Assembly: GCA_020072965.1 (NCBI GenBank)
Contig: JAIQFY010000039.1
Location: 1 to 51,064, forward strand
Source: Terriglobia bacterium
Lineage (GTDB): Bacteria > Acidobacteriota > Terriglobia > JAIQFV01
Length of the DNA: 51,064 bases
Reading direction: 5' to 3'
Of this stretch, positions 3,343 through 16,234 are shown piece after piece (positions within the stretch are counted from its first letter, which is position 1; every line of letters begins with the position of its first letter). A model generated the notes under the pieces. That model saw only the letters and a list, made by a program, of their open reading frames with translations, had not been told where the DNA came from and did no database searches. Made by a program: the position numbers and the translations under genes.

Positions 3343-4150
3343 AGGACCTCCTTCTATTTGCCGGTCAATTCAATCTTTACAAATCTCCATGCTTTAAACC
3401 GGGGTTTCCGGCCATGAAAGAAGGAGCAATTGTCCAACCTCGTCCCGTTGTCTCAACACCGTCCCCTCATCGTCCATTTGTATGTGGAAAGATCTCATTA
3501 CAGAGGCGTGCTCTATCCGCCTCTACTCTATAAGGCGGCAAATGAATCGAAACAGGTTCACCGAGTGAAAGTTTTTATTGAATGCTTACGTCAGGGTCGG
3601 GGTTTGGAATGGTGGAAGGAGGGGCGAACAAATGGAACAAGCAGAGTACACGCAAGGGGCTGGGGGGGGAATGTTTCGCGCCCGAAGGGTGCCGTCAGTC
3701 CATTTCGTGGTTTATCGGTTGAATCATCGGGATAGTAAGAAAGGTCGTGAATTGTTCCCGATCTGAGTAGAGGGCTGGACTGATTCGGATTTATTCAACC
3801 ACTGAAAAGGGGAAAGATACCAATCCACCGTTCTGTCGGCCCTACGGGCCTCTAAAATGATTCTTGGCAGACCTGCACACCCCACCCTCGCTCCGCTAAG
3901 AACGCGGAGCTCAGATGGGGCCACAATCTGACGGCCCTCCGGGCCTCATCTGCTTCCCTTTCCCTTCTTGGTTACACTCTCGCCCCGTGTGAGACACGGG
4001 ACTCAGATGAGGCCACATTCTGAGAGACATCCGGGCTTAACCGGATTCTTTCTCCATCTTCATTCCACCTCGTTCCGAGCCTAATCTGACTCTCTCCCCA
4101 CTTCCTTCACTGCCTTTCCCTTCGAAATTCCCGTTCAATCCGGGAGTAAG
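3343..4150. other. Intergenic region with repeats and low coding potential
   Basis: About 800 bases with no convincing gene. The open frames at 3430-3766 are short, lack ribosome binding sites and have unnatural composition. The right half is rich in GGCC-type palindromes and carries an imperfect direct repeat (listed separately). The downstream end of the acetoacetyl-CoA synthetase gene faces into this region. Confidence 0.5.
3905..4036. repeat. Imperfect direct repeat, two copies ~90 bp apart
   Basis: The first copy (about 3908-3942) holds CTCAGATGGGGCCACAATCT, then GACGG and CCTCCGGGCC. The second (about 4000-4036) holds CTCAGATGAGGCCACATTCT, then GAGAGACATCCGGGCTT. The shared part is roughly 35 bp. 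GGCCCTCCGGGCC in the first copy is itself palindromic. This looks like a pair of degenerate extragenic repeats; function unknown. Confidence 0.5.
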
Positions 4151-6663: not shown

Positions 6664-9558
6664 TCAACCGATGCCGCGCCACAGTCGAACCTTGGATCCT
6701 TGTTTCACGGTCGTTCCGGCCGGCGGGTCTTGTTTGACGATCACATCCGTATCGCCCCCCGGAGCCACCTCATACCCCAGTCCCTTTTGATTGAGCTGAA
6801 TAATAGCGTCTTTCAAATGCATGCCGGTAACTCGTGGCACTGTGATCTCTCGCACCTTCTTTCCTTGAGCAGTCGGTGTCTCGACTGGGCGAGCAATCAC
6901 GAGGTTCACCGGGGTCGCCGACCGTCGCGGCACCTGTGTACCAGGGCGAGGGTCTTGCGATATGACTTTTCCTGAACCGGCACTTGTGTCCTGATAATTC
7001 ACACTGCCGAGCTTAAAGTCTCCAAGATATCCCACAAATCCACTCGGCAATTGCTTTCGAGCTTGTGCCTCAGTCATTCCGATGAAGTTCGGCACTTGAA
7101 TCTGGGGAACCGCTGCTGCGACTCGAAGGCTGACAGGACACCCTCTTGCCAGCTGCGTGTTTGCCTTGGGATTTTGAGAGAGCACCGTTCCTTCACGCTC
7201 TTGGTTTGATTCCTGGGGCGAAATCTTTCCGTCGGCCAGTCCTACCTCGTGGAGCCTCCTCAAAGCTTCACGCTGGTCAACCCCGCGGAGATCGGGAACC
7301 GTTACAGCTCCTGATCCCGGACCAGTCACCGTGATGCTAACCAGGCTGCTTGGTTGCACCATGGCATCCTTCTTGGGATCCTGGCTGATCACTTTTCGTG
7401 CCGGGTCGCAAGTCACCTTTTCGAGCACCCGGCTCGTCAGCCCACTTCTTTGAATTTTTTTGGCGGCTTCATCGACGTTGTCCCCAATCAGCTTGGGAAC
7501 CTTCACCGGCTTGCCCTCCACCTGCCTTCCTGAGGGTACGGCCACAACGAGATCAACGGGTGTCCCGCTGCGCGCCTCTGCAGAACCCCTCGGAGATTGT
7601 TCAATTACCGTATCGGGGCGTTGGTCGCTTGCTCTGCGCTCTATGGTGCCACGACCGAAACCTGATTTATCAATCAGAGCCAAAGCGTCCTTGATGTTCA
7701 TCCCCACCACGGACGGAACGGGAACGACGGCCAAGGGCGTCCCCACATTGCTCTCTGCCTGTTTTACGCGTGTCCCAGACTTGAAGAGCGGGGATTCCAC
7801 TCTCAGGTAACTCTGATAGTAAAGACGCGCCTCATCGGAGCGCCCGGTTTTTTGGAGCACATTGGCCAGTTGAAAGTAAGCATTGGCAAACCCCGGATCC
7901 AGCTGAGTCGCCGTCAGGAACTGCTCTGCTGCTCTAGCGCTGTCCCCTTGAGCATAGAACACTTCCCCCAACGCTGTTCGCGCAACCGCAAAATCTGGAT
8001 AGCGTTTGCTGATCCCTTCCAAATGCTCCCGAGCCCGGGCAAGGCCCTGCTTCGACAGATCCTTTCGCCCTTGAACGGCCTGCAGTTTGGCCTCGCCTGC
8101 ATAGGTCTGGCCGATCCCTACTAGAGCATATGGGTAGTTTGGAGATTCTCCCAAAGCCATCTGAAAATGCCGACCAGCATCTGCGAAATAGCGCTGCGCT
8201 TGAGCAAAGGCGGGGCTGTCATCTTCTTCTACGCTCAGTTCGCCCAACTGCATAAGGACCTGGCCAAGGTGGGTGAAGGGTATAGCCCGATTGGTTCCAC
8301 CTTCTTTTCCCCAAAGGCTTGGATCAAGCGACTTTTTGTATACTGTTTGAGCCTTGAGGAGAAGGTCCGTGGCCTCCCGCCCCTGACCGCGGTCAATTGC
8401 GGCCAGCGCCAGGTCCCTGTACATGTCGCCCATCCCATTGTAGGGGAAGGCAAAGCCAGGATCGATGGAAACCGCCTTTCGATAAAGCTCACCGGCACTC
8501 TTTGGATCGCCTGCCAGGCGATAAGCGTTCCCGAGATTGTTGTAGTAAAGCGCCAATTCTCTTCCCTGGAGGCTGACCTCACCGGCTTCTTTATAGGCGC
8601 GGAGAGCTTTGCCGGCCTCCGCCCAATCGCCAAACACACGGGCGAGTTGTTCAAAGGCCTCGCGTCGTTCCGGAGTCAGAATCGTGCGAAGCCGGGCTTC
8701 CCGATAGGCCTGGGCCCGGCGCTCCCTTGACTCAAAGGTCTGGATCAGACTTTGTGAAGGCAACTGGGGACGTGTCACAATCACGGAGTCGCTATTGGAG
8801 TCGACGACTTTTCTGACGAGGTCCGCGTCCGCACCCAGGATTCGCAGGGGTCGCCCCCGCCCGGTGCTCAAGTGGGTGAGGCGATCTATTTGAATGTTTG
8901 CGGCCGGGGGTTTCTTCTTACCTTGGAACATCTCTTCCGGAGCGTGGGCGCGTAAAAAACTGTGACCCTGGAAATACCCCTCTTCCTGGAGCGGGACGGA
9001 AATCTTCTGAGATGACTCTGATCCCGAAACGGAAAGGTATTCAAGAGAGCCGGTTAACTGGATGACATCAAGGTTATCCCCCTCCACTTCCGCTTGAAAT
9101 TCCGTTCCTCGGGCCCCCAGAATTGCAAACACGGTTTTGACATCAAATCGACCCCGCAACGACGCAAAAAGGCGCCCCAGTTTGAGGAATACGGAACTGC
9201 CATCAATGATCTCGGTGGTGGTATTAGGGTAAAGAGTAATGTCTTTCTCGCTGTCCGCCACTTCATCAAGACGCAACAGGGCCGTCACACTGGAACTGGT
9301 GGTAATGATGTCGCCGTAGCAGAGCGGCATTCCACTCACACCCGCCATCACCGCTACTCCGCGCTGCACAGACATTTGATCGCTCCGGACTGCATCAAGG
9401 CGCTGGGAAGCAATCTCAATCCCATCCACGCGTCCTGCAACCTGCGGGCATGATGCTTCGGGGGCCGGACTCGCGAGAGCGGGCAAAGCTGCCATGGTCC
9501 CAATTACAAACACATACACCCTTCCTCGGTTGTAAGCTTGTTTGATTGAGAATTTCAT
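6664..9558 (-). CDS. Exported FecR-domain / TPR / five-PASTA protein
   Basis: The 964-residue protein starts with a signal-like segment (residues 14-30, ending ALASPAPEA). Residues about 80-175 form a FecR-type domain (GDIITTSSSVTALLRL, LGRLFASLRGRFDVKT, ILGARGTEFQAEV). Residues about 335-590 are tetratricopeptide repeats (ALYYNNLGNAYRLAGDPKSA, FANAYFQLANVLQKTGRSDE). The C-terminus has five PASTA domains at about 613-675, 686-747, 752-815, 820-890 and 905-964, each starting V-P-x-(V/L/F)-x-G. PASTA domains usually bind peptidoglycan or beta-lactams at the ends of Ser/Thr kinases; here no kinase is attached. The ATG overlaps the stop of the CHASE2 gene by 4 nt (ATGA), so the two are translationally coupled. 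A role as periplasmic scaffold or cell-wall sensor is inference. Confidence 0.85.
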   Translation of the reverse strand: MKFSIKQAYNRGRVYVFVIGTMAALPALASPAPEASCPQVAGRVDGIEIASQRLDAVRSDQMSVQRGVAVMAGVSGMPLCYGDIITTSSSVTALLRLDEVADSEKDITLYPNTTTEIIDGSSVFLKLGRLFASLRGRFDVKTVFAILGARGTEFQAEVEGDNLDVIQLTGSLEYLSVSGSESSQKISVPLQEEGYFQGHSFLRAHAPEEMFQGKKKPPAANIQIDRLTHLSTGRGRPLRILGADADLVRKVVDSNSDSVIVTRPQLPSQSLIQTFESRERRAQAYREARLRTILTPERREAFEQLARVFGDWAEAGKALRAYKEAGEVSLQGRELALYYNNLGNAYRLAGDPKSAGELYRKAVSIDPGFAFPYNGMGDMYRDLALAAIDRGQGREATDLLLKAQTVYKKSLDPSLWGKEGGTNRAIPFTHLGQVLMQLGELSVEEDDSPAFAQAQRYFADAGRHFQMALGESPNYPYALVGIGQTYAGEAKLQAVQGRKDLSKQGLARAREHLEGISKRYPDFAVARTALGEVFYAQGDSARAAEQFLTATQLDPGFANAYFQLANVLQKTGRSDEARLYYQSYLRVESPLFKSGTRVKQAESNVGTPLAVVPVPSVVGMNIKDALALIDKSGFGRGTIERRASDQRPDTVIEQSPRGSAEARSGTPVDLVVAVPSGRQVEGKPVKVPKLIGDNVDEAAKKIQRSGLTSRVLEKVTCDPARKVISQDPKKDAMVQPSSLVSITVTGPGSGAVTVPDLRGVDQREALRRLHEVGLADGKISPQESNQEREGTVLSQNPKANTQLARGCPVSLRVAAAVPQIQVPNFIGMTEAQARKQLPSGFVGYLGDFKLGSVNYQDTSAGSGKVISQDPRPGTQVPRRSATPVNLVIARPVETPTAQGKKVREITVPRVTGMHLKDAIIQLNQKGLGYEVAPGGDTDVIVKQDPPAGTTVKQGSKVRLWRGIG

Positions 9559-10946
9559 GACGCTCCTTCCTTGCGATGCTTGCCACTGTCTCTCCTGACG
9601 CCGGAGCGCCGTGATCCGCTCAGCACCCAGCCCGTCACGTAGTAACCGGCAACCAGCGCACTTGCTTGGTAGACAATATCCAGATGAATCTGTGCGTGGT
9701 TATAGATGAGTACTGTCACAACGACGAGCGACCCAAGTAAGAAAATTAAGCTCAAAGGGAGGTTCCATTCTCTCCCAAACAATTGGATTGGCATCGGGCG
9801 GTGCCCGCCCGGAACGGCCACGCGGGTAATGCCAGCACCCAGACACAGCAGAAACAGCACTGTCATTTGTCCCACAATTCCTAATTCGCGCGGGTATCCT
9901 CCCTGCAATAAATTGCTTACCACACTGGCATGGATCCGGTACCCGAATGGGGTTTGGTCAGGCCCTACTTGGAATTTTTCCTTTTCCATTTGAACTCCGA
10001 CCAACACGATTCTGCCCTTATAGTTACTGACGAGGTTTTCGGGCTCTTCATCGATCCACTTTTGGACCAGGTTATAAGGCTTTGAGATGGCGTCAAGCTC
10101 GACCGGTTCCACCATATTCAAGACCAGGCTCGCAGTCTTGTATTCTCCACCGGTATCGTCCTGGCGCTGAATCCGGCATGGGATCGATTCGAATTGCTCC
10201 GTGCCAGCGCGAAGGACGACACGACTTCTTACTTCGTTAACCAACGCGGTTACCGGCGCACCTTTCTTTTGGCTCTCCCAAACCAGTTTGATCTGAAGAG
10301 GAAATGTAGCAATGGAACTGGTTGTTGCCGACCCGATGGATCGGGATTCGGACAGCTTGATGTAACGATAAAAGGAGCCGCCGTAGTCCTTTCTCTCACC
10401 TCCGACTTTGACTGAGCTAATCTGATCGGGGCCAAGAACGGCGGCCAGGGTGGGGCTTACAGCCGGTTGTGGCTGGCCGGGGACAGGCTCATAGCCCAGG
10501 ATCACCCGCGTCGCACCCGCATTGCGGATGGCGCCTGCAAATTCCTTGTCAAAGGGACTGGGATCAGGGAAGGCGAAGTCGAACGCGATGATCCGGGCGC
10601 CCGCTTGTGCCAGGCCACCCACGAGTTTGGCGTGACGTGCGCGCCACTTCAGGCGCGCTTCTTCATCGCCAAAATACCATGGATCATCTTTCCCCCGCTC
10701 TTCGATGTAAATAATGCGCAGGTTGGGATCAACATGCGCGGAGCGCGAATAACCCGCCAACGAAAAGAAGGCCCGCTCCAGGTAGTCTACGCACCCAAAG
10801 AGAAAGTTGGGAAATCTGAGCCAAGAGGCAGAGAGGATGAGCCCAGCCAGCAGTAAATGAGTACTCGACCATTTCAGGAATTTCATCCAGGCATTCTTCT
10901 CCCCAATCTTTCGAAGAAGTCTGGACCCGGCAACGGAGGCTGTCAT
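9555..10946 (-). CDS. CHASE2-domain membrane sensor protein without output domain
   Basis: The frame encodes 463 residues. A membrane helix near residues 29-47 precedes a large extracytoplasmic CHASE2 domain (about 60-350; LRIIYIEERGKDDPWYFGDE, GARIIAFDFAFPDP, YKGRIVLVGVQ, TPFGYRIHASVVSNLLQGGY). Three C-terminal membrane helices follow (about 357-380, 395-415, 423-445), the usual CHASE2 layout. A kinase or cyclase normally follows; here only a short basic tail remains. The start is uncertain: the first start is at 10946, while an internal ATG at 10886 (MKFLKWSST) has a GGGGAG site upstream and may be the true one. The FecR/TPR/PASTA gene overlaps its stop, suggesting both proteins act together at the envelope. 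Confidence 0.85.
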   Translation of the reverse strand: MTASVAGSRLLRKIGEKNAWMKFLKWSSTHLLLAGLILSASWLRFPNFLFGCVDYLERAFFSLAGYSRSAHVDPNLRIIYIEERGKDDPWYFGDEEARLKWRARHAKLVGGLAQAGARIIAFDFAFPDPSPFDKEFAGAIRNAGATRVILGYEPVPGQPQPAVSPTLAAVLGPDQISSVKVGGERKDYGGSFYRYIKLSESRSIGSATTSSIATFPLQIKLVWESQKKGAPVTALVNEVRSRVVLRAGTEQFESIPCRIQRQDDTGGEYKTASLVLNMVEPVELDAISKPYNLVQKWIDEEPENLVSNYKGRIVLVGVQMEKEKFQVGPDQTPFGYRIHASVVSNLLQGGYPRELGIVGQMTVLFLLCLGAGITRVAVPGGHRPMPIQLFGREWNLPLSLIFLLGSLVVVTVLIYNHAQIHLDIVYQASALVAGYYVTGWVLSGSRRSGVRRDSGKHRKEGAS

Positions 10947-11263: not shown

Positions 11264-11272
11264 TTAGGTCCC
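11211..11272 (+). repeat. Dispersed palindromic repeat, copy A
   Basis: Copy A has GTCTCGAGAGTCTTGATTCG, AAGCGCAC and then the dyad GCCGCGATGGATCGGGGC (11244-11261). It matches copy B (26371-26440) almost base for base over about 50 bp and copy C (29261-29325) more loosely. On the minus strand it begins immediately after the senB stop codon, which would suit a role in transcript 3'-end formation. Confidence 0.75.
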
Positions 11273-12232
11273 CAATTCCTCTATCAGTCGTCTCCAGGCG
11301 TCGCGTTCGCGGACAGGGGAAAAGAGCGGCGCAAGTTTTGCGCACTGGGAACGGAGCCGGGCAAGAAATTTCGGATCTGTTTCAGTGCGAATGAAGAGTC
11401 GCGCCAACTCCTCGGTGTTGCCCACACTGAAATAGCCCGAGTACTCTTCACCTAGAATCCCTACCGAGCCGGGGATCCGGGAAGCGAGCAGAGGAACACC
11501 GGCGACGATGGCTTCTCCCAGGACGTTAGCCCCGCCCTCAGCCCCCGAGGAGAGCACACAAAGTGCGCTTCGTGCGAGCGTCCGTTCGACGTAGCGCCGT
11601 GGCCGGTCCCCCAGCCAATGGTAGCGTGGATTAATTCCAGTCTCCCTGCGCGCGCGGCGGGCCATGGCTTTGGTCATTGCAGCCCCCAGATGGAAAATTC
11701 GGAGTCGGGACGAAGACGGGAGCCGTCGCGCCGCAAGGGCCGCTCTGAAGGGGTCCTTAATCGCACGCAGGTGCGCGATGACGCAGACATCGAAATTCCG
11801 GGGCGATTGGGGCACCGCAGAAATTCTCCGAATCTTTATCGTCGGGGTGACGGACTGGTAGATGATCCGCAGCTTTTTGCGGAGCGGGGGTTGCAACTCC
11901 CTCCGAGCCATCGGCTGGAGGGCGACGATGCGAGTTGCCAGTTTGAGGGATTCCTGCGCAGTCCGACTTCGAGGTAGATCGCGGTAAAGATCAGTCCCTG
12001 TCAGGGCGACCACGAGTGGGCGATCTGGATAGTCACGGTGAAAACCCCGGACGGAGGAGTAACTACGCCGGGCGTGCAAGGCAATCATCAGATCATAACG
12101 CTCCCCCTTGTACCCCTGTGCAAGGCGAACCCTGTGTCCCAGCCCTTTCAGAATGCGTGCCCATCGAAGCGCGGTGATACTGTTGCCGTAATGCGACCGG
12201 GGTGGCGATGGGGTGACAATCCCGATTCTCAT
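11264..12232 (-). CDS. senB: SenB-type selenosugar synthase (GT-B glycosyltransferase)
   Basis: The open frame extends upstream inside senA, but the family start is MRIGIVTPSPPRSHYGNSIT, placing the ATG at 12232 with a 4-nt ATGA overlap with the senA stop. The 322-residue protein has a GT-B fold and the SenB (TIGR04348-type) signatures YDLMIALHARRS, VVALTGTDLYRDL and RIIYQSV. Its C-terminal nucleotide-sugar half is SSGAEGGANVLGEAIVAG and PLLASRIPGSVGILG. Characterised SenB joins selenophosphate and a UDP-sugar to form a selenosugar, which SenA couples to hercynine. The selenophosphate synthetase (SenC/SelD) and the hercynine-forming methyltransferase (EgtD) are not in this window and would have to be encoded elsewhere. 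The call rests on recognised motifs and the pairing with senA. Confidence 0.88.
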   Translation of the reverse strand: MRIGIVTPSPPRSHYGNSITALRWARILKGLGHRVRLAQGYKGERYDLMIALHARRSYSSVRGFHRDYPDRPLVVALTGTDLYRDLPRSRTAQESLKLATRIVALQPMARRELQPPLRKKLRIIYQSVTPTIKIRRISAVPQSPRNFDVCVIAHLRAIKDPFRAALAARRLPSSSRLRIFHLGAAMTKAMARRARRETGINPRYHWLGDRPRRYVERTLARSALCVLSSGAEGGANVLGEAIVAGVPLLASRIPGSVGILGEEYSGYFSVGNTEELARLFIRTETDPKFLARLRSQCAKLAPLFSPVRERDAWRRLIEELGT

Positions 12233-13623
12233 GTCTCTTCCGACAGGGCACAAGTGCGGAAGCCGGCCCAGACGTCGCGGCGGTGCGGTTGGTAGAAGTT
12301 CCGATACTGGTTTCGAATCAGCCCGGACCGGGTAACCCAGCACCCTCCGCGCAGCACTTTGTGGTCTCCAAACCAGGGCGCCGAATACTCTTTGTACGGA
12401 CCTGGAGAGAACTCTGGATATGGTCCAAAGTCCGTTGCCGTCCACTCCCAGACATTGCCCACTAGCTGGCGGCAACCGAAAGCACTGTCCCCTGCCGGCA
12501 GAGCATCGACATCCACACACCCCATGGCGCGCCAGTCTAGATTGGCGCGATCCGGGCTCGGTGGCTCATTCCCCCAAGGAAATAGTCGCCGGCGTTGTGT
12601 GATGTCGCCACCCAGGGCCGGTCCGGCGCTGGCGGCAAATTCCCATTCCAACTCCGAGGGCAAGCGGCGTCCGGCCCAGCGGCAATAGGCATCGGCTTCG
12701 TACCAATTGACGTGAAGGACGGGCAAACGCGGTTCGAGGGAGACCCACGTGTCAAAGTTGCGGCGCAACCATCGGCCTCCTCTTTGCTTCTGCCAGTAGA
12801 CCGGATGTTCAGCTTGGGCCGACTCGCGCCATTGCCATCCCTCGTTGGTCCAGAGGTCGCGCCGTTTGTAGCCATTATCATCGACGAACGCCCCAAACTC
12901 CGCATTACTGACAGCGGCACGGGCCATGTGGAAAGGATTGATCGTGACGGGATGCACCCACTGCTCATTATCAAAGACAAACCCCATGTCGGGCGTGCTG
13001 CCAAGAAGAGAAGCCCCACCAGCGATCTCAGCATCCCCGAGGTCCACTCCGAAATTATTGCCGCGCTCCTTGTTTTCCCCGCCAGGACTCTGACTGAGCG
13101 CTCCGTGGTCGCTGACGTGCTGAGGGACTCGAACTTTAGGAGGAGGGTACCCCAATGTCTGACGAGTATAGGTGATCGCTTCTGCGTGCATGTACTCATG
13201 AAGGAGTGCGAGGCGAATGAAGTACGTTTCATCATACCTTTCAGGCTCCAGCTGAGGCCGAGACCCGGCCGCCCCTTCCCGCTCCATGACACGCTCCAGG
13301 ATGCCTTGAATGTACGCGACCGTCTCGGCCTTCGAAGGAAGAACCAAGTCCCATCGGGTGTCGTGAGCGACTGCGGCGGAGTCATAGAGGCGATCACGAT
13401 CGGCCAGGGTCGGCTTCTGCTTGCGGTAGTGGCGGAGGACCCAGTACTCCTGGAACCATCCCACATGCCCGATTTCCCAGCGGAGTGGGTTGACGATATC
13501 GAGGCGCGGGCCAATCATCTGCTCGTCGGTCAGGTCTGCGATGAGTTCGAGCGTTCGGTCGCGGGCTTCCTGCAGACTGTTGAGTAGCGCAATCAGAGGC
13601 TGTTCGGTCGATGGAGTGGTCAT
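12229..13623 (-). CDS. senA: SenA-type selenoneine synthase (EgtB-like iron enzyme)
   Basis: I prefer the ATG at 13623 (MTTPSTEQPL) over a TTG six codons upstream; neither has a clear ribosome binding site. The 464-residue protein has an N-terminal DinB_2 domain and a C-terminal FGE-sulfatase domain, the EgtB/OvoA/SenA layout. The iron-binding triad is visible as H53 (EIGHVGWFQEYW) and the HX3HXE motif LLHEYMHAEA (H142, H146). The FGE part shows HVNWYEADAYCRWAGRRLPS, LVGNVWEWTATDFGPYP, KVLRGGCW and YRNFYQPHRRDVWAGFR. An EgtB-like enzyme alone could belong to ergothioneine synthesis; the overlapping senB gene is what points to selenoneine, with carbon-selenium bond formation on hercynine. No egtA, egtC, egtD or egtE gene is adjacent. 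Confidence 0.88.
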   Translation of the reverse strand: MTTPSTEQPLIALLNSLQEARDRTLELIADLTDEQMIGPRLDIVNPLRWEIGHVGWFQEYWVLRHYRKQKPTLADRDRLYDSAAVAHDTRWDLVLPSKAETVAYIQGILERVMEREGAAGSRPQLEPERYDETYFIRLALLHEYMHAEAITYTRQTLGYPPPKVRVPQHVSDHGALSQSPGGENKERGNNFGVDLGDAEIAGGASLLGSTPDMGFVFDNEQWVHPVTINPFHMARAAVSNAEFGAFVDDNGYKRRDLWTNEGWQWRESAQAEHPVYWQKQRGGRWLRRNFDTWVSLEPRLPVLHVNWYEADAYCRWAGRRLPSELEWEFAASAGPALGGDITQRRRLFPWGNEPPSPDRANLDWRAMGCVDVDALPAGDSAFGCRQLVGNVWEWTATDFGPYPEFSPGPYKEYSAPWFGDHKVLRGGCWVTRSGLIRNQYRNFYQPHRRDVWAGFRTCALSEET

Positions 13624-15109: not shown

Positions 15110-16234
15110 CTACTGCTCCTTTGATCCGGGCGCCTTCGCTTCGCGGTATCCAGCCTTCAGTGCGTCCGTTTCCGTCATAAATTGCCCTTGTTTGGTTTTG
15201 CCGTACCAGCGATCCCCTTCGCGATGGAAGATCTTCGTAGCTGTATTCACCCACACCATCCCTTTCACGGGTGGCACCTGAGCGGTGATGCCCTCGACGG
15301 GTTCGGCGCTCGGTGCACTTGTCGTTAACTTTGGTGCGACCGGAGTGGGACCTGGCCTGACCGGCTCTGATGGCTTCGTCGGGGCCGGAGCTGACTTCGT
15401 GGCCGCCGCACCTGTCATGACCAACGGACTGATCTTGAGGATGGTCGCAGCCGGCACGCCCGCCTTTGACAAGTCGCCCACAGCACTGTAAGGTCGTCCG
15501 GCAATGATTTTCGTTGCGGTGGCTGGACCCACTCCCGGCAGTTTTTCCAGGTCGGCTTGGCTCGCCGAATTCAAGTCAATCTTCGAGCCGACCTGCGCCG
15601 GCAGAGTGGAAACCGGGGCCGGGGCCGATTTAACCGGCGCTGAGGGTGTGGTCGTGGCCGGCACTGACTTCGCCGCCGCTGCACCCGTCATGACCAACGG
15701 GCTGATCTTCAGAATAGTAGCAGCCGGCACGCCCGCCTTTGACAGGTCGCTTACCGAACTATAAGGCCGCCCGGCGATGATTTTCGTTGCGGTGGCCGGG
15801 CCCACTCCCGGTAGTTTTTCCAGGTCGGCTTGGCTCGCCGAATTCAAGTCAATCTTCGAGCCGACCTGCGCCGCTTGGGACGCAACCGGGGAGGGTGAGG
15901 CTTTAGCCGGCGCAGACGCTGCCTTTGCCGCTGGCACTGATTTTGTCGCCGCCGCACCAACCATGACTAATGGACTGATCTTCAGAATGGTGGCCGCAGG
16001 CAGGCCCGATTTCGCGAGGTCGCCTACCGAGCCATAAGGCCGTCCGGCAATAATTTTCTTCGCAGTGGCCGGACCTACTCCCGGCAGTTTTTCCAGGTCG
16101 GCCTGACTCGCCGAATTCAGGTCCACCTTCGTGCTGACCGGTGCCGATTGAGGTACCCCCTGCATCAAGGCGGGCACCGCCATCAGGCACAGACAGACCA
16201 CGATTATCCAGCCGACAACTCTCCTTCTCGACAT
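15110..16234 (-). CDS. Exported protein with three ComEA-like helix-hairpin-helix modules
   Basis: The ATG at 16234 has GGAGG six bases upstream. A signal peptide ([18 protein letters not shown]) is followed by three almost identical modules of about 56 residues at 36-91, 127-182 and 218-273. Each contains [20 protein letters not shown] and [20 protein letters not shown], then [12 protein letters not shown]. Ala/Pro/Ser/Lys linkers separate them. Such ComEA-type helix-hairpin-helix units bind DNA, and ComEA itself is a periplasmic or surface DNA receptor. The C-terminus (about 320-368) is a separate short domain with [20 protein letters not shown] and [20 protein letters not shown], often fused to such proteins. 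Extracellular or periplasmic DNA binding is inferred. Repeats this similar suggest recent duplication. Confidence 0.85.
15400..16130 (-). repeat. 273-bp in-frame tandem repeat, three units
   Basis: The helix-hairpin-helix module plus linker recurs with an exact 273-bp (91-codon) period. Long identical DNA tracts occur between units, for instance around 15504-15600 and 15777-15873. The linkers are more diverged than the modules, so selection or gene conversion keeps the modules alike. Unit number could vary between strains or be collapsed in assembly. Confidence 0.8.

What the first reader, a model, noticed from the sequence alone, without database searches (positions are those of the whole stretch)
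11264..13623. senA-senB selenoneine biosynthesis pair in a putative acidobacterium
An EgtB-like iron enzyme (HX3HXE plus upstream His) overlaps by ATGA a TIGR04348-type glycosyltransferase (ALHARRS, ALTGTDLYRDL). This combination is the hallmark of selenoneine biosynthesis. The pair occurs here without a selD/senC or egtD neighbour, so selenophosphate and hercynine must be supplied from elsewhere. If the host is an acidobacterium, this extends the selenometabolite trait to that phylum, and the genetic setting differs from the three-gene senABC layout.
Basis: partly seen in the sequence, partly recalled or inferred. Interest (0 to 1): 0.8.

Follow-up and report, generated by a model that had tools for sequence, protein, structure and literature searches.

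The report
Selenoneine gene pair in an acidobacterium
An acidobacterium carries the two key genes for making selenoneine, a selenium antioxidant, and keeps the genes that feed them elsewhere in its genome; the pathway turns up in many bacterial phyla, and in some of them one of its enzymes seems itself to be built with selenium.

Summary
SenA (12229-13623, minus, 464 aa) and SenB (11264-12232, minus, 322 aa) overlap by ATGA. SenA scores 487 bits on NCBIfam SenA (cut-off 420) and fails the EgtB cut-off; SenB scores 379 on TIGR04348 (cut-off 300). In a 63-row tree SenA lies with SenA, apart from EgtB and the ovoselenol enzyme OvsA. Its Y413/N442/F443 are the residues that, by the title of PDB 8ux5, turn OvsA into a hercynine-binding selenoneine maker. 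Ten SenB residues checked against the published enzyme are kept. The same genome holds a selenocysteine-type SelD, SelB, tRNA-Sec and a separate egtB-egtD pair, so both substrates are available. The host is an acidobacteriote; 30 of 396 genomes of that phylum have SenB. So: ordinary selenoneine biosynthesis, new lineage, selD unlinked (SelD lies near SenB in only 12 of 80 loci read). Related loci hold something newer: SenB genes with one in-frame TGA exactly where homologues have Cys (codon 150 in five Poribacteria, codon 4 in Acidobacteriota and Tectomicrobia, codon 225 in one acidobacteriote), pointing to SenB as an unlisted selenoprotein. The window's own SenB has Cys at 150 and 225.

The parts
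12229..13623 (-). senA: selenoneine synthase, 464 aa; Fe ligands H53, H142, H146; hercynine triplet Y413, N442, F443
   Evidence: NF041186 487 bits over cut-off 420; TIGR03440 EgtB 327 under cut-off 360; tree; triplet as in the 8ux5 title
11264..12232 (-). senB: selenosugar synthase (Se-glycosyltransferase, GT-B fold), 322 aa; Cys150 and Cys225 are sites that read TGA in some relatives
   Evidence: TIGR04348 379 bits over cut-off 300; AlphaFold model pLDDT 90.5, Foldseek ranks 1-15 are SenB chains; ten published catalytic or binding residues kept
12229..12232 (-). ATGA overlap of the senA stop and the senB start (translational coupling inferred)
   Evidence: sequence

Best explanation
A two-gene senA-senB operon that makes selenoneine. 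SelD (elsewhere in the genome, itself a selenoprotein by its sequence) turns selenide and ATP into selenophosphate; SenB puts that selenium on the sugar of a UDP-sugar, giving a 1-seleno-sugar; SenA, a non-haem iron enzyme, uses O2 to join the selenosugar to the imidazole of hercynine, giving a selenoxide that breaks down to selenoneine. Hercynine comes from EgtD, which in this genome sits beside EgtB, so hercynine is a branch point between ergothioneine and selenoneine. Shown here: family membership, active-site residues, presence in the genome of SelD, EgtD, EgtB, SelB and tRNA-Sec. Taken from the literature on Variovorax enzymes: the chemistry. Inferred: that this host makes the compound, and the coupling by ATGA.
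For: Family scores over curated cut-offs for both genes and under the EgtB cut-off. Tree: SenA plus OvsA apart from EgtB at 100/98*, OvsA apart at 100/100*, VpSenA inside a 45-row SenA set at 97/97*, window SenA with its same-genus relative at 100/99*. Y413/N442/F443 equal the M401Y/Q430N/A431F change that PDB 8ux5 is titled with ('hercynine-binding variant with selenoneine-biosynthetic activity'); a natural OvsA homologue (L189) has M/Q/A. The triplet Y/N/F is in 76 of 96 SenA rows, and also in 13 of 18 EgtB rows: it speaks for hercynine against histidine, not for selenium against sulfur; the latter rests on score, clade and the SenB partner. SelD with KAAGUAAKI at C68, SelB at C76, tRNA-Sec at C9, 69.8 bits, EgtD and EgtB side by side at C15. 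In three same-class genomes (G008, G016, G051; 91, 88 and 83% complete) senA-senB-egtD are consecutive on one strand and the only SenA/EgtB-family hit at E<=1e-20 is SenA, so EgtD there seems to serve SenA. EgtD lies within reach of SenB in 26 of 80 named loci. Pathway from PMC9814287 and PMC10903977 (passages read).
Against: No biochemistry. The SenA clade itself has only 84/56 support (one clade in 88% of bootstrap trees), and VpSenA is a long branch (2.13). phmmer ranks OvsA (313 bits) above VpSenA (241), which lacks about 50 residues that both others have, and Foldseek ranks OvsA and MthEgtB above VpSenA; the SenA model is poor (pLDDT 66.5, under 50 over 166-193 and most of 347-439, where Y413 lies). 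EgtD scores 288.4 bits, just under its cut-off of 290.9. Across 101 relatives SenB does not track SelD (17 of 19 with SenB against 64 of 82 without, p 0.35) and tracks EgtD weakly (16 of 19 against 50 of 82, p 0.065). G004 has senAB but no SelD or EgtD hit at E<=1e-20.
Confidence: 0.92

Rival explanations
1. SenA is an OvsA-type enzyme: it joins selenium to free histidine, and the product is ovoselenol.
For: OvsA is the best-scoring solved structure by sequence (313 bits) and by Foldseek; the segment of about 50 residues missing in VpSenA is present in both.
Against: Window has Y/N/F, not OvsA's M/Q/A; OvsA forms its own clade at 100/100* (two rows); no OvoA C-terminal-type methyltransferase over cut-off in the genome (best 34 against 170 bits; that ovoselenol needs one is recalled); EgtD linkage of relatives points to hercynine.
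Confidence: 0.04
2. SenA is an EgtB that makes ergothioneine, and the neighbouring glycosyltransferase is unrelated.
For: Same fold and superfamily; TIGR03440 gives 327 bits; the hercynine triplet is shared with 13 of 18 EgtB rows.
Against: Below the EgtB cut-off (360); a separate EgtB sits beside EgtD at C15; tree puts SenA apart from EgtB at 100/98*; SenA is adjacent on the same strand to SenB in 46 of 63 loci that hold both.
Confidence: 0.02
3. The pair makes a related but different selenometabolite (another histidine betaine or another sugar fate).
For: SenB from Variovorax uses six UDP-sugars (PMC10891094, abstract), so the sugar is open; five planctomycete-type genomes have SenB with no SenA hit, so selenosugars may have other uses.
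Against: The sugar is lost on the way to selenoneine (PMC10903977, PMC10702425 passages), so its identity does not change the product; the hercynine triplet and EgtD linkage point to the other half.
Confidence: 0.04

Closest known systems
sen cluster of Variovorax paradoxus (SenC, SenB, SenA)
   Same: SenA and SenB families over curated cut-offs; SenB model matches VpSenB with TM 0.90 and 38% identity; the ten residues checked are kept
   Different: No selD/senC in the cluster; SelD is an unlinked Sec-containing copy; window SenA keeps about 50 residues (about 337-388) that VpSenA lacks; SenB has EGGANV where VpSenB has EGGAHV (H235 is N236 here) and I158 for V157
OvsA of Halomonas utahensis (ovoselenol selenoxide synthase; PDB 8u41, 8u42, 8ux5)
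   Same: Nearest solved relative by sequence and fold; sister group to SenA
   Different: OvsA has M401/Q430/A431; window has Y/N/F, the triplet of the engineered hercynine-binding variant 8ux5
EgtB, sulfoxide synthase of ergothioneine biosynthesis
   Same: Fold, iron triad, and the hercynine triplet of 13 of 18 EgtB rows
   Different: Under the EgtB cut-off, other clade; the host has a separate EgtB, of the kind with W in place of F (RNW), nearest to EgtB-IV

Membership tests
SenA (selenoneine synthase, NF041186) | Score over the curated cut-off, and over EgtB | tested here: met
   487.1 against 420; EgtB 327.4 against 360
SenA (selenoneine synthase, NF041186) | Non-haem iron triad | tested here: met
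   H53, H142, H146 invariant in A2
SenA (selenoneine synthase, NF041186) | Hercynine-type active site (Y/N/F as in the 8ux5 variant) | tested here: met
   Y413, N442, F443; 76 of 96 SenA rows have it, but so do 13 of 18 EgtB rows, so it excludes OvsA only
SenA (selenoneine synthase, NF041186) | Placement with SenA, outside EgtB and OvsA | tested here: met
   SenA+OvsA against EgtB 100/98*, SenA clade alone only 84/56
SenA (selenoneine synthase, NF041186) | Turns hercynine plus selenosugar into selenoneine | not testable with these tools
   needs protein
SenB (TIGR04348) | Score over the curated cut-off | tested here: met
   379 against 300; next family 112.5 against 400
SenB (TIGR04348) | K158, N20/T23/E231, selenophosphate pocket H58 R61 T83 T85 R155, and E239 (Vp numbering) | tested here: met
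   K159, N17/T20/E232, H53 R56 T78 T80 R156, E240 (PMC10891094 sections 8-10 read; alignment to VpSenB 8jjn). Two other residues named there differ: H235 is N236, V157 is I158
SenB (TIGR04348) | GT-B fold of SenB | tested here: met
   Foldseek ranks 1-15 are all SenB chains, E 1.9e-32 to 8.7e-27; next BshA
SenB (TIGR04348) | Makes selenosugar from selenophosphate | not testable with these tools
   needs protein
sen cluster (senABC) | selD/senC within the cluster | tested here: not met
   only SelD hit of the genome at E<=1e-20 is on C68; window is the whole contig C65
OvsA (ovoselenol) | M/Q/A active-site triplet; OvsA clade | tested here: not met
EgtB (TIGR03440) | Score over cut-off; EgtB clade | tested here: not met

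The most novel reading that the evidence does not exclude
SenB is itself a selenoprotein in several lineages, at three different sites (codons 4, 150 and 225 in the window's numbering), each in a strand of the window model (2-6, 147-152, 224-227), two of them just ahead of loops that carry catalytic residues (R156/K159, E232). Because site 150 also holds A, S, V, L, G or T in 12 of 96 SenB, and the sites differ by lineage, the UGA may act less as chemistry than as a selenium gate: full-length SenB is made only when charged Sec-tRNA is plentiful, so selenium flows into selenoneine only after selenoproteins are served. The window's SenB would be the ungated Cys form.
Probability: 0.65. Interest if true: 0.72.

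Novelty: new member of a known kind. Interest (0 to 1): 0.45.

Why it matters
Selenoneine biosynthesis was found by looking for genes that overlap selD (PMC9814287, passages read), so a cluster without selD is what that search would miss. Here the selD-less pair, often with egtD beside it, recurs in Acidobacteriota and in many other phyla, so selenium small-molecule metabolism is likely to be wider than a selD-anchored view shows. The Sec-SenB genes tie two uses of selenium together: the enzyme that spends selenophosphate on a small molecule would in some bacteria need selenocysteine for its own synthesis, which makes the order in which a cell spends scarce selenium directly testable.

Tried and rejected
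Rejected: EgtB (under cut-off, other clade, separate EgtB in the genome); OvsA (triplet, clade). The OvsA idea was taken seriously because OvsA is the best PDB hit.

Led nowhere or stayed weak: co-occurrence of SenB with SelD and EgtD over 101 relatives (p 0.35 and 0.065); neighbours of SenB genes without SenA in reach showed no shared partner by eye (12 loci of 5.7-13 kb listed; no family search run on them); the SenA structure model is too poor to place residues; papers with selenoneine and 'Acidobacteria' 0 (this spelling does not match 'Acidobacteriota'). The founding Nature 2022 paper and an ovoselenol paper did not come up, so whether they already name Acidobacteriota is not known to me.

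Against the Sec-SenB reading: hairpins fitting the published bacterial SECIS model occur after 43-76% of the other codons of the same genes. The Sec-site hairpin is rare against homologous codons only in L216, L122 and L087 (0 of 114, 2 of 114 and 1 of 102 as low), not in the five Poribacteria (16-23 of 83) nor in L095 (21 of 114). L095 has a GTG at codon 6, after the TGA and before N17, that could serve as a start, so L095 is the weakest case. The codon-freeze p values are for stretches chosen after looking; the run test over the whole gene, which counted the TGA column, gives 0.011. Four of the 13 in-frame TGA fall outside Cys sites: L010 (same gene as L100; position 176, an Arg site), L129 (an insertion), L017 and L232 (positions 322 and 312, by the gene's end); some TGA are therefore plain errors, pseudogenes or ends. 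Most of these records are titled MAG. Rows lost by pattern: 7 of 15, L182 and L185; one search read 76 SenB, read 96, one search placed 15 of 28 new loci.

Full report
What is there. On the minus strand senA (13623 down to 12229) is followed by senB (12232 down to 11264), sharing ATGA. NCBIfam names them SenA (NF041186, 487 bits, cut-off 420) and SenB (TIGR04348, 379 bits, cut-off 300); SenA scores 327 on EgtB, under that model's 360. Pfam shows DinB_2 plus FGE-sulfatase for SenA and GT group 1 for SenB.

SenA, EgtB or OvsA? The best solved relatives of SenA are OvsA (8ux5 and 8u41, 313 and 303 bits), then VpSenA (241), then MthEgtB (210). OvsA makes ovoselenol (entry titles), so I tested it. 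The two OvsA sequences differ at three places; a natural OvsA homologue found in a genome of a gammaproteobacterial set (L189, 58% identical) has the 8u41 letters M/Q/A, and the entry title of 8ux5 says that M401Y/Q430N/A431F makes it 'a hercynine-binding variant with selenoneine-biosynthetic activity'. The window has Y413, N442 and F443, as VpSenA has. Y/N/F is found in 76 of 96 SenA rows but also in 13 of 18 EgtB rows: it argues for hercynine against histidine, and the choice of selenium rests on score, clade and the SenB partner. A 63-row IQ-TREE puts SenA plus OvsA apart from EgtB at 100/98*, OvsA (two rows) apart at 100/100*, and the window's SenA with its same-genus relative at 100/99*, inside a SenA group that also holds VpSenA (45 rows, 97/97*); the SenA group as a whole has 84/56.

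SenB. Ten residues named in PMC10891094 (sections 8-10 read) are kept by alignment to VpSenB: N17, T20, H53, R56, T78, T80, R156, K159, E232, E240; two others named there differ, H235 (N236 here) and V157 (I158 here). The AlphaFold model (pLDDT 90.5) finds SenB crystal structures at ranks 1-15, then BshA.

Supply. The window is a whole contig of a 5.92 Mb genome (108 contigs, 100% complete by the tool's figure). That genome has one SelD at E<=1e-20 (C68:64978-65904), whose N-terminal part is in frame only if a TGA is read in KAAGUAAKI, SelB (C76), tRNA-Sec (C9, 69.8 bits), and EgtD next to EgtB (C15). Its EgtB is nearest to EgtB-IV (223 bits). So the missing partners are present, and hercynine is shared between two pathways.

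Host and spread. SenB is over cut-off in 19 of 101 genomes (the host and 100 relatives) and in 30 of 396 genomes drawn over the phylum (25 of 211 genera). SenA is over cut-off in 19 of the same 101, 18 of them among the 19 with SenB; the odd ones are G033 (SenA fragment, 390 bits) and G047 (SenA near a contig end with part of a SenB beside it). The pair is in the same neighbourhood in the same-genus genome G001, between the same GNAT gene and AMP-binding gene, with other genes inserted in the window.

Layout. Of the 80 named loci kept out of 563 or more, SenA lies with SenB in 63, EgtD within reach in 26, SelD in 12, all four in one (L143); SenA and SenB are on one strand and adjacent in 46 of the 63, on opposite strands in 9, farther apart in 8 (loci reach at most 6 kb each way and many end early). 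In G008, G016 and G051 senA-senB-egtD run together and no EgtB was found at E<=1e-20 (genomes 83-91% complete): the clearest sign that SenA uses hercynine in this class. L085, a Chloracidobacterium record, has selD-senA-senB together.

A newer thing in the relatives. Some SenB genes hold a single in-frame TGA. Of 96 distinct SenB aligned to the window's, 13 have one: five Poribacteria at position 150 (Cys in 78 of 96), three at position 4 (Cys in 25 of 96; Acidobacteriota G478, Acidobacteriota G516 = L122, Tectomicrobia L095), one at position 225 (L087, Acidobacteria; Cys in 11 of 103), and four not at Cys sites. In the phylum of the Poribacteria SenB was found in 15 of 84 genomes, five with the TGA (positions). 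For these five: amino-acid identity 66-89%; pN far below pS both before and after the TGA in all ten pairs (0.06-0.26 against 0.51-0.92); tRNA-Sec at 70 bits or more in all five, SelB over cut-off in the three tested; and although only 16 of 171 conserved degenerate columns keep one codon in all five, six of the twelve between -4 and +11 of the TGA do (p 1.7e-4, stretch chosen after looking), including CGT CCC GTG AAG, which can fold with what follows into GUCC-CGUGAA-GGA(C/U), loop 20 nt after the TGA. For codon 4, no ATG, GTG or TTG follows in frame before the catalytic N17 and T20 in L216 and L122, whereas L095 has a GTG at codon 6 and is weaker; L216 and L122 have strong hairpins with GGU in the loop (-18.2 and -12.0 kcal/mol), as low in 0 and 2 of 114 homologous codons. 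L087 has one of -15.9, as low in 1 of 102. All nine have a hairpin within the bacterial SECIS constraints quoted from PMC13188914 (passages), but such hairpins are common by chance. That 2026 inventory of 119 prokaryotic selenoprotein families or subfamilies has no 'SenB', 'glycosyl' or 'TIGR04348' in its main text, PMC12013277 no 'glycosyl' or 'SenB', and selenoprotein with Poribacteria gave 0 papers; supplements were not searched. I hold the reading that at least some of these are true Sec-SenB, the gate included as its boldest form, at 0.65; the gate itself is inference.

Verdict. The window's pair is ordinary selenoneine biosynthesis in a new lineage and with an unlinked selD: a new member of a known kind. 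It is a good anchor for two testable questions: how widely selD-less sen loci occur, and why SenB takes up selenocysteine at different places in different phyla.

Noticed in passing
L105 683-1636, L125 6001-6954, L155 6001-6948, L184, L186 (Poribacteria): SenB with one in-frame TGA at the Cys of FE(V/I)-C-V(L/I)GHLR (window C150); frame otherwise intact, purifying selection on both sides, tRNA-Sec in all five genomes. Candidate selenoprotein.
   Followed up: yes
L216 (G478), L218 = L122 (G516), L095 6001-6945: SenB with an in-frame TGA at codon 4 (M-R/K-I-TGA-I/L-VTPAP), Cys there in 25 of 96 SenB; strong SECIS-like hairpins in the first two; L095 has a possible GTG start after the TGA.
   Followed up: partly
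L087, TGA at 3743: SenB with TGA at position 225, where the window has Cys225; single genome, hairpin -15.9 kcal/mol after it.
   Followed up: partly
L096, L098, L110, L141, L156 (genomes G110-G114, titled Planctomycetes or Phycisphaerae): SenB with no SenA hit (E<=1e-60) anywhere in the genome, though SelB is present: selenosugar may have another use there. No shared neighbour seen by eye.
   Followed up: partly
L189 and L205 (G412, C4:76980-80750): A genome of the gammaproteobacterial set with an OvsA homologue, a SelD and a SenA close together: ovoselenol and selenoneine genes side by side; no SenB seen in these 4.3 kb loci.
   Followed up: no
L020, L164 (G004 C98): senA-senB in a genome (100% complete by the tool) with no SelD and no EgtD hit at E<=1e-20 but a tRNA-Sec of 69.6 bits; probably an assembly gap, else a real puzzle.
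   Followed up: no
L044/L165 and L018/L081 (G099); L082 (G013): SenA and SenB on different contigs (G099), and separated by about 1.6 kb with a beta-propeller-like ORF (by eye) between (G013): the operon breaks up in close relatives.
   Followed up: partly
L134 4097-7897, L145 6965-9232, L149 6930-9257: SelD match inside ORFs of about 1266, 755 and 775 aa beside SenB: SelD possibly fused to other domains; no family search run.
   Followed up: no
L010/L100 (G008) position 176; L129: In-frame TGA in SenB at non-Cys sites, likely errors or decay; useful as a baseline for the Sec cases.
   Followed up: partly
window 6664-10946: Lying between the sen pair and the AMP-binding gene, which are neighbours in G001: a 964-aa ORF that by eye has FecR-, TPR- and PASTA-like parts (not scanned) and a CHASE2-domain protein.
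   Followed up: no
window 15110-16234: 374-aa protein with a signal-like start (by eye) and three near-identical helix-hairpin-helix repeats.
   Followed up: no
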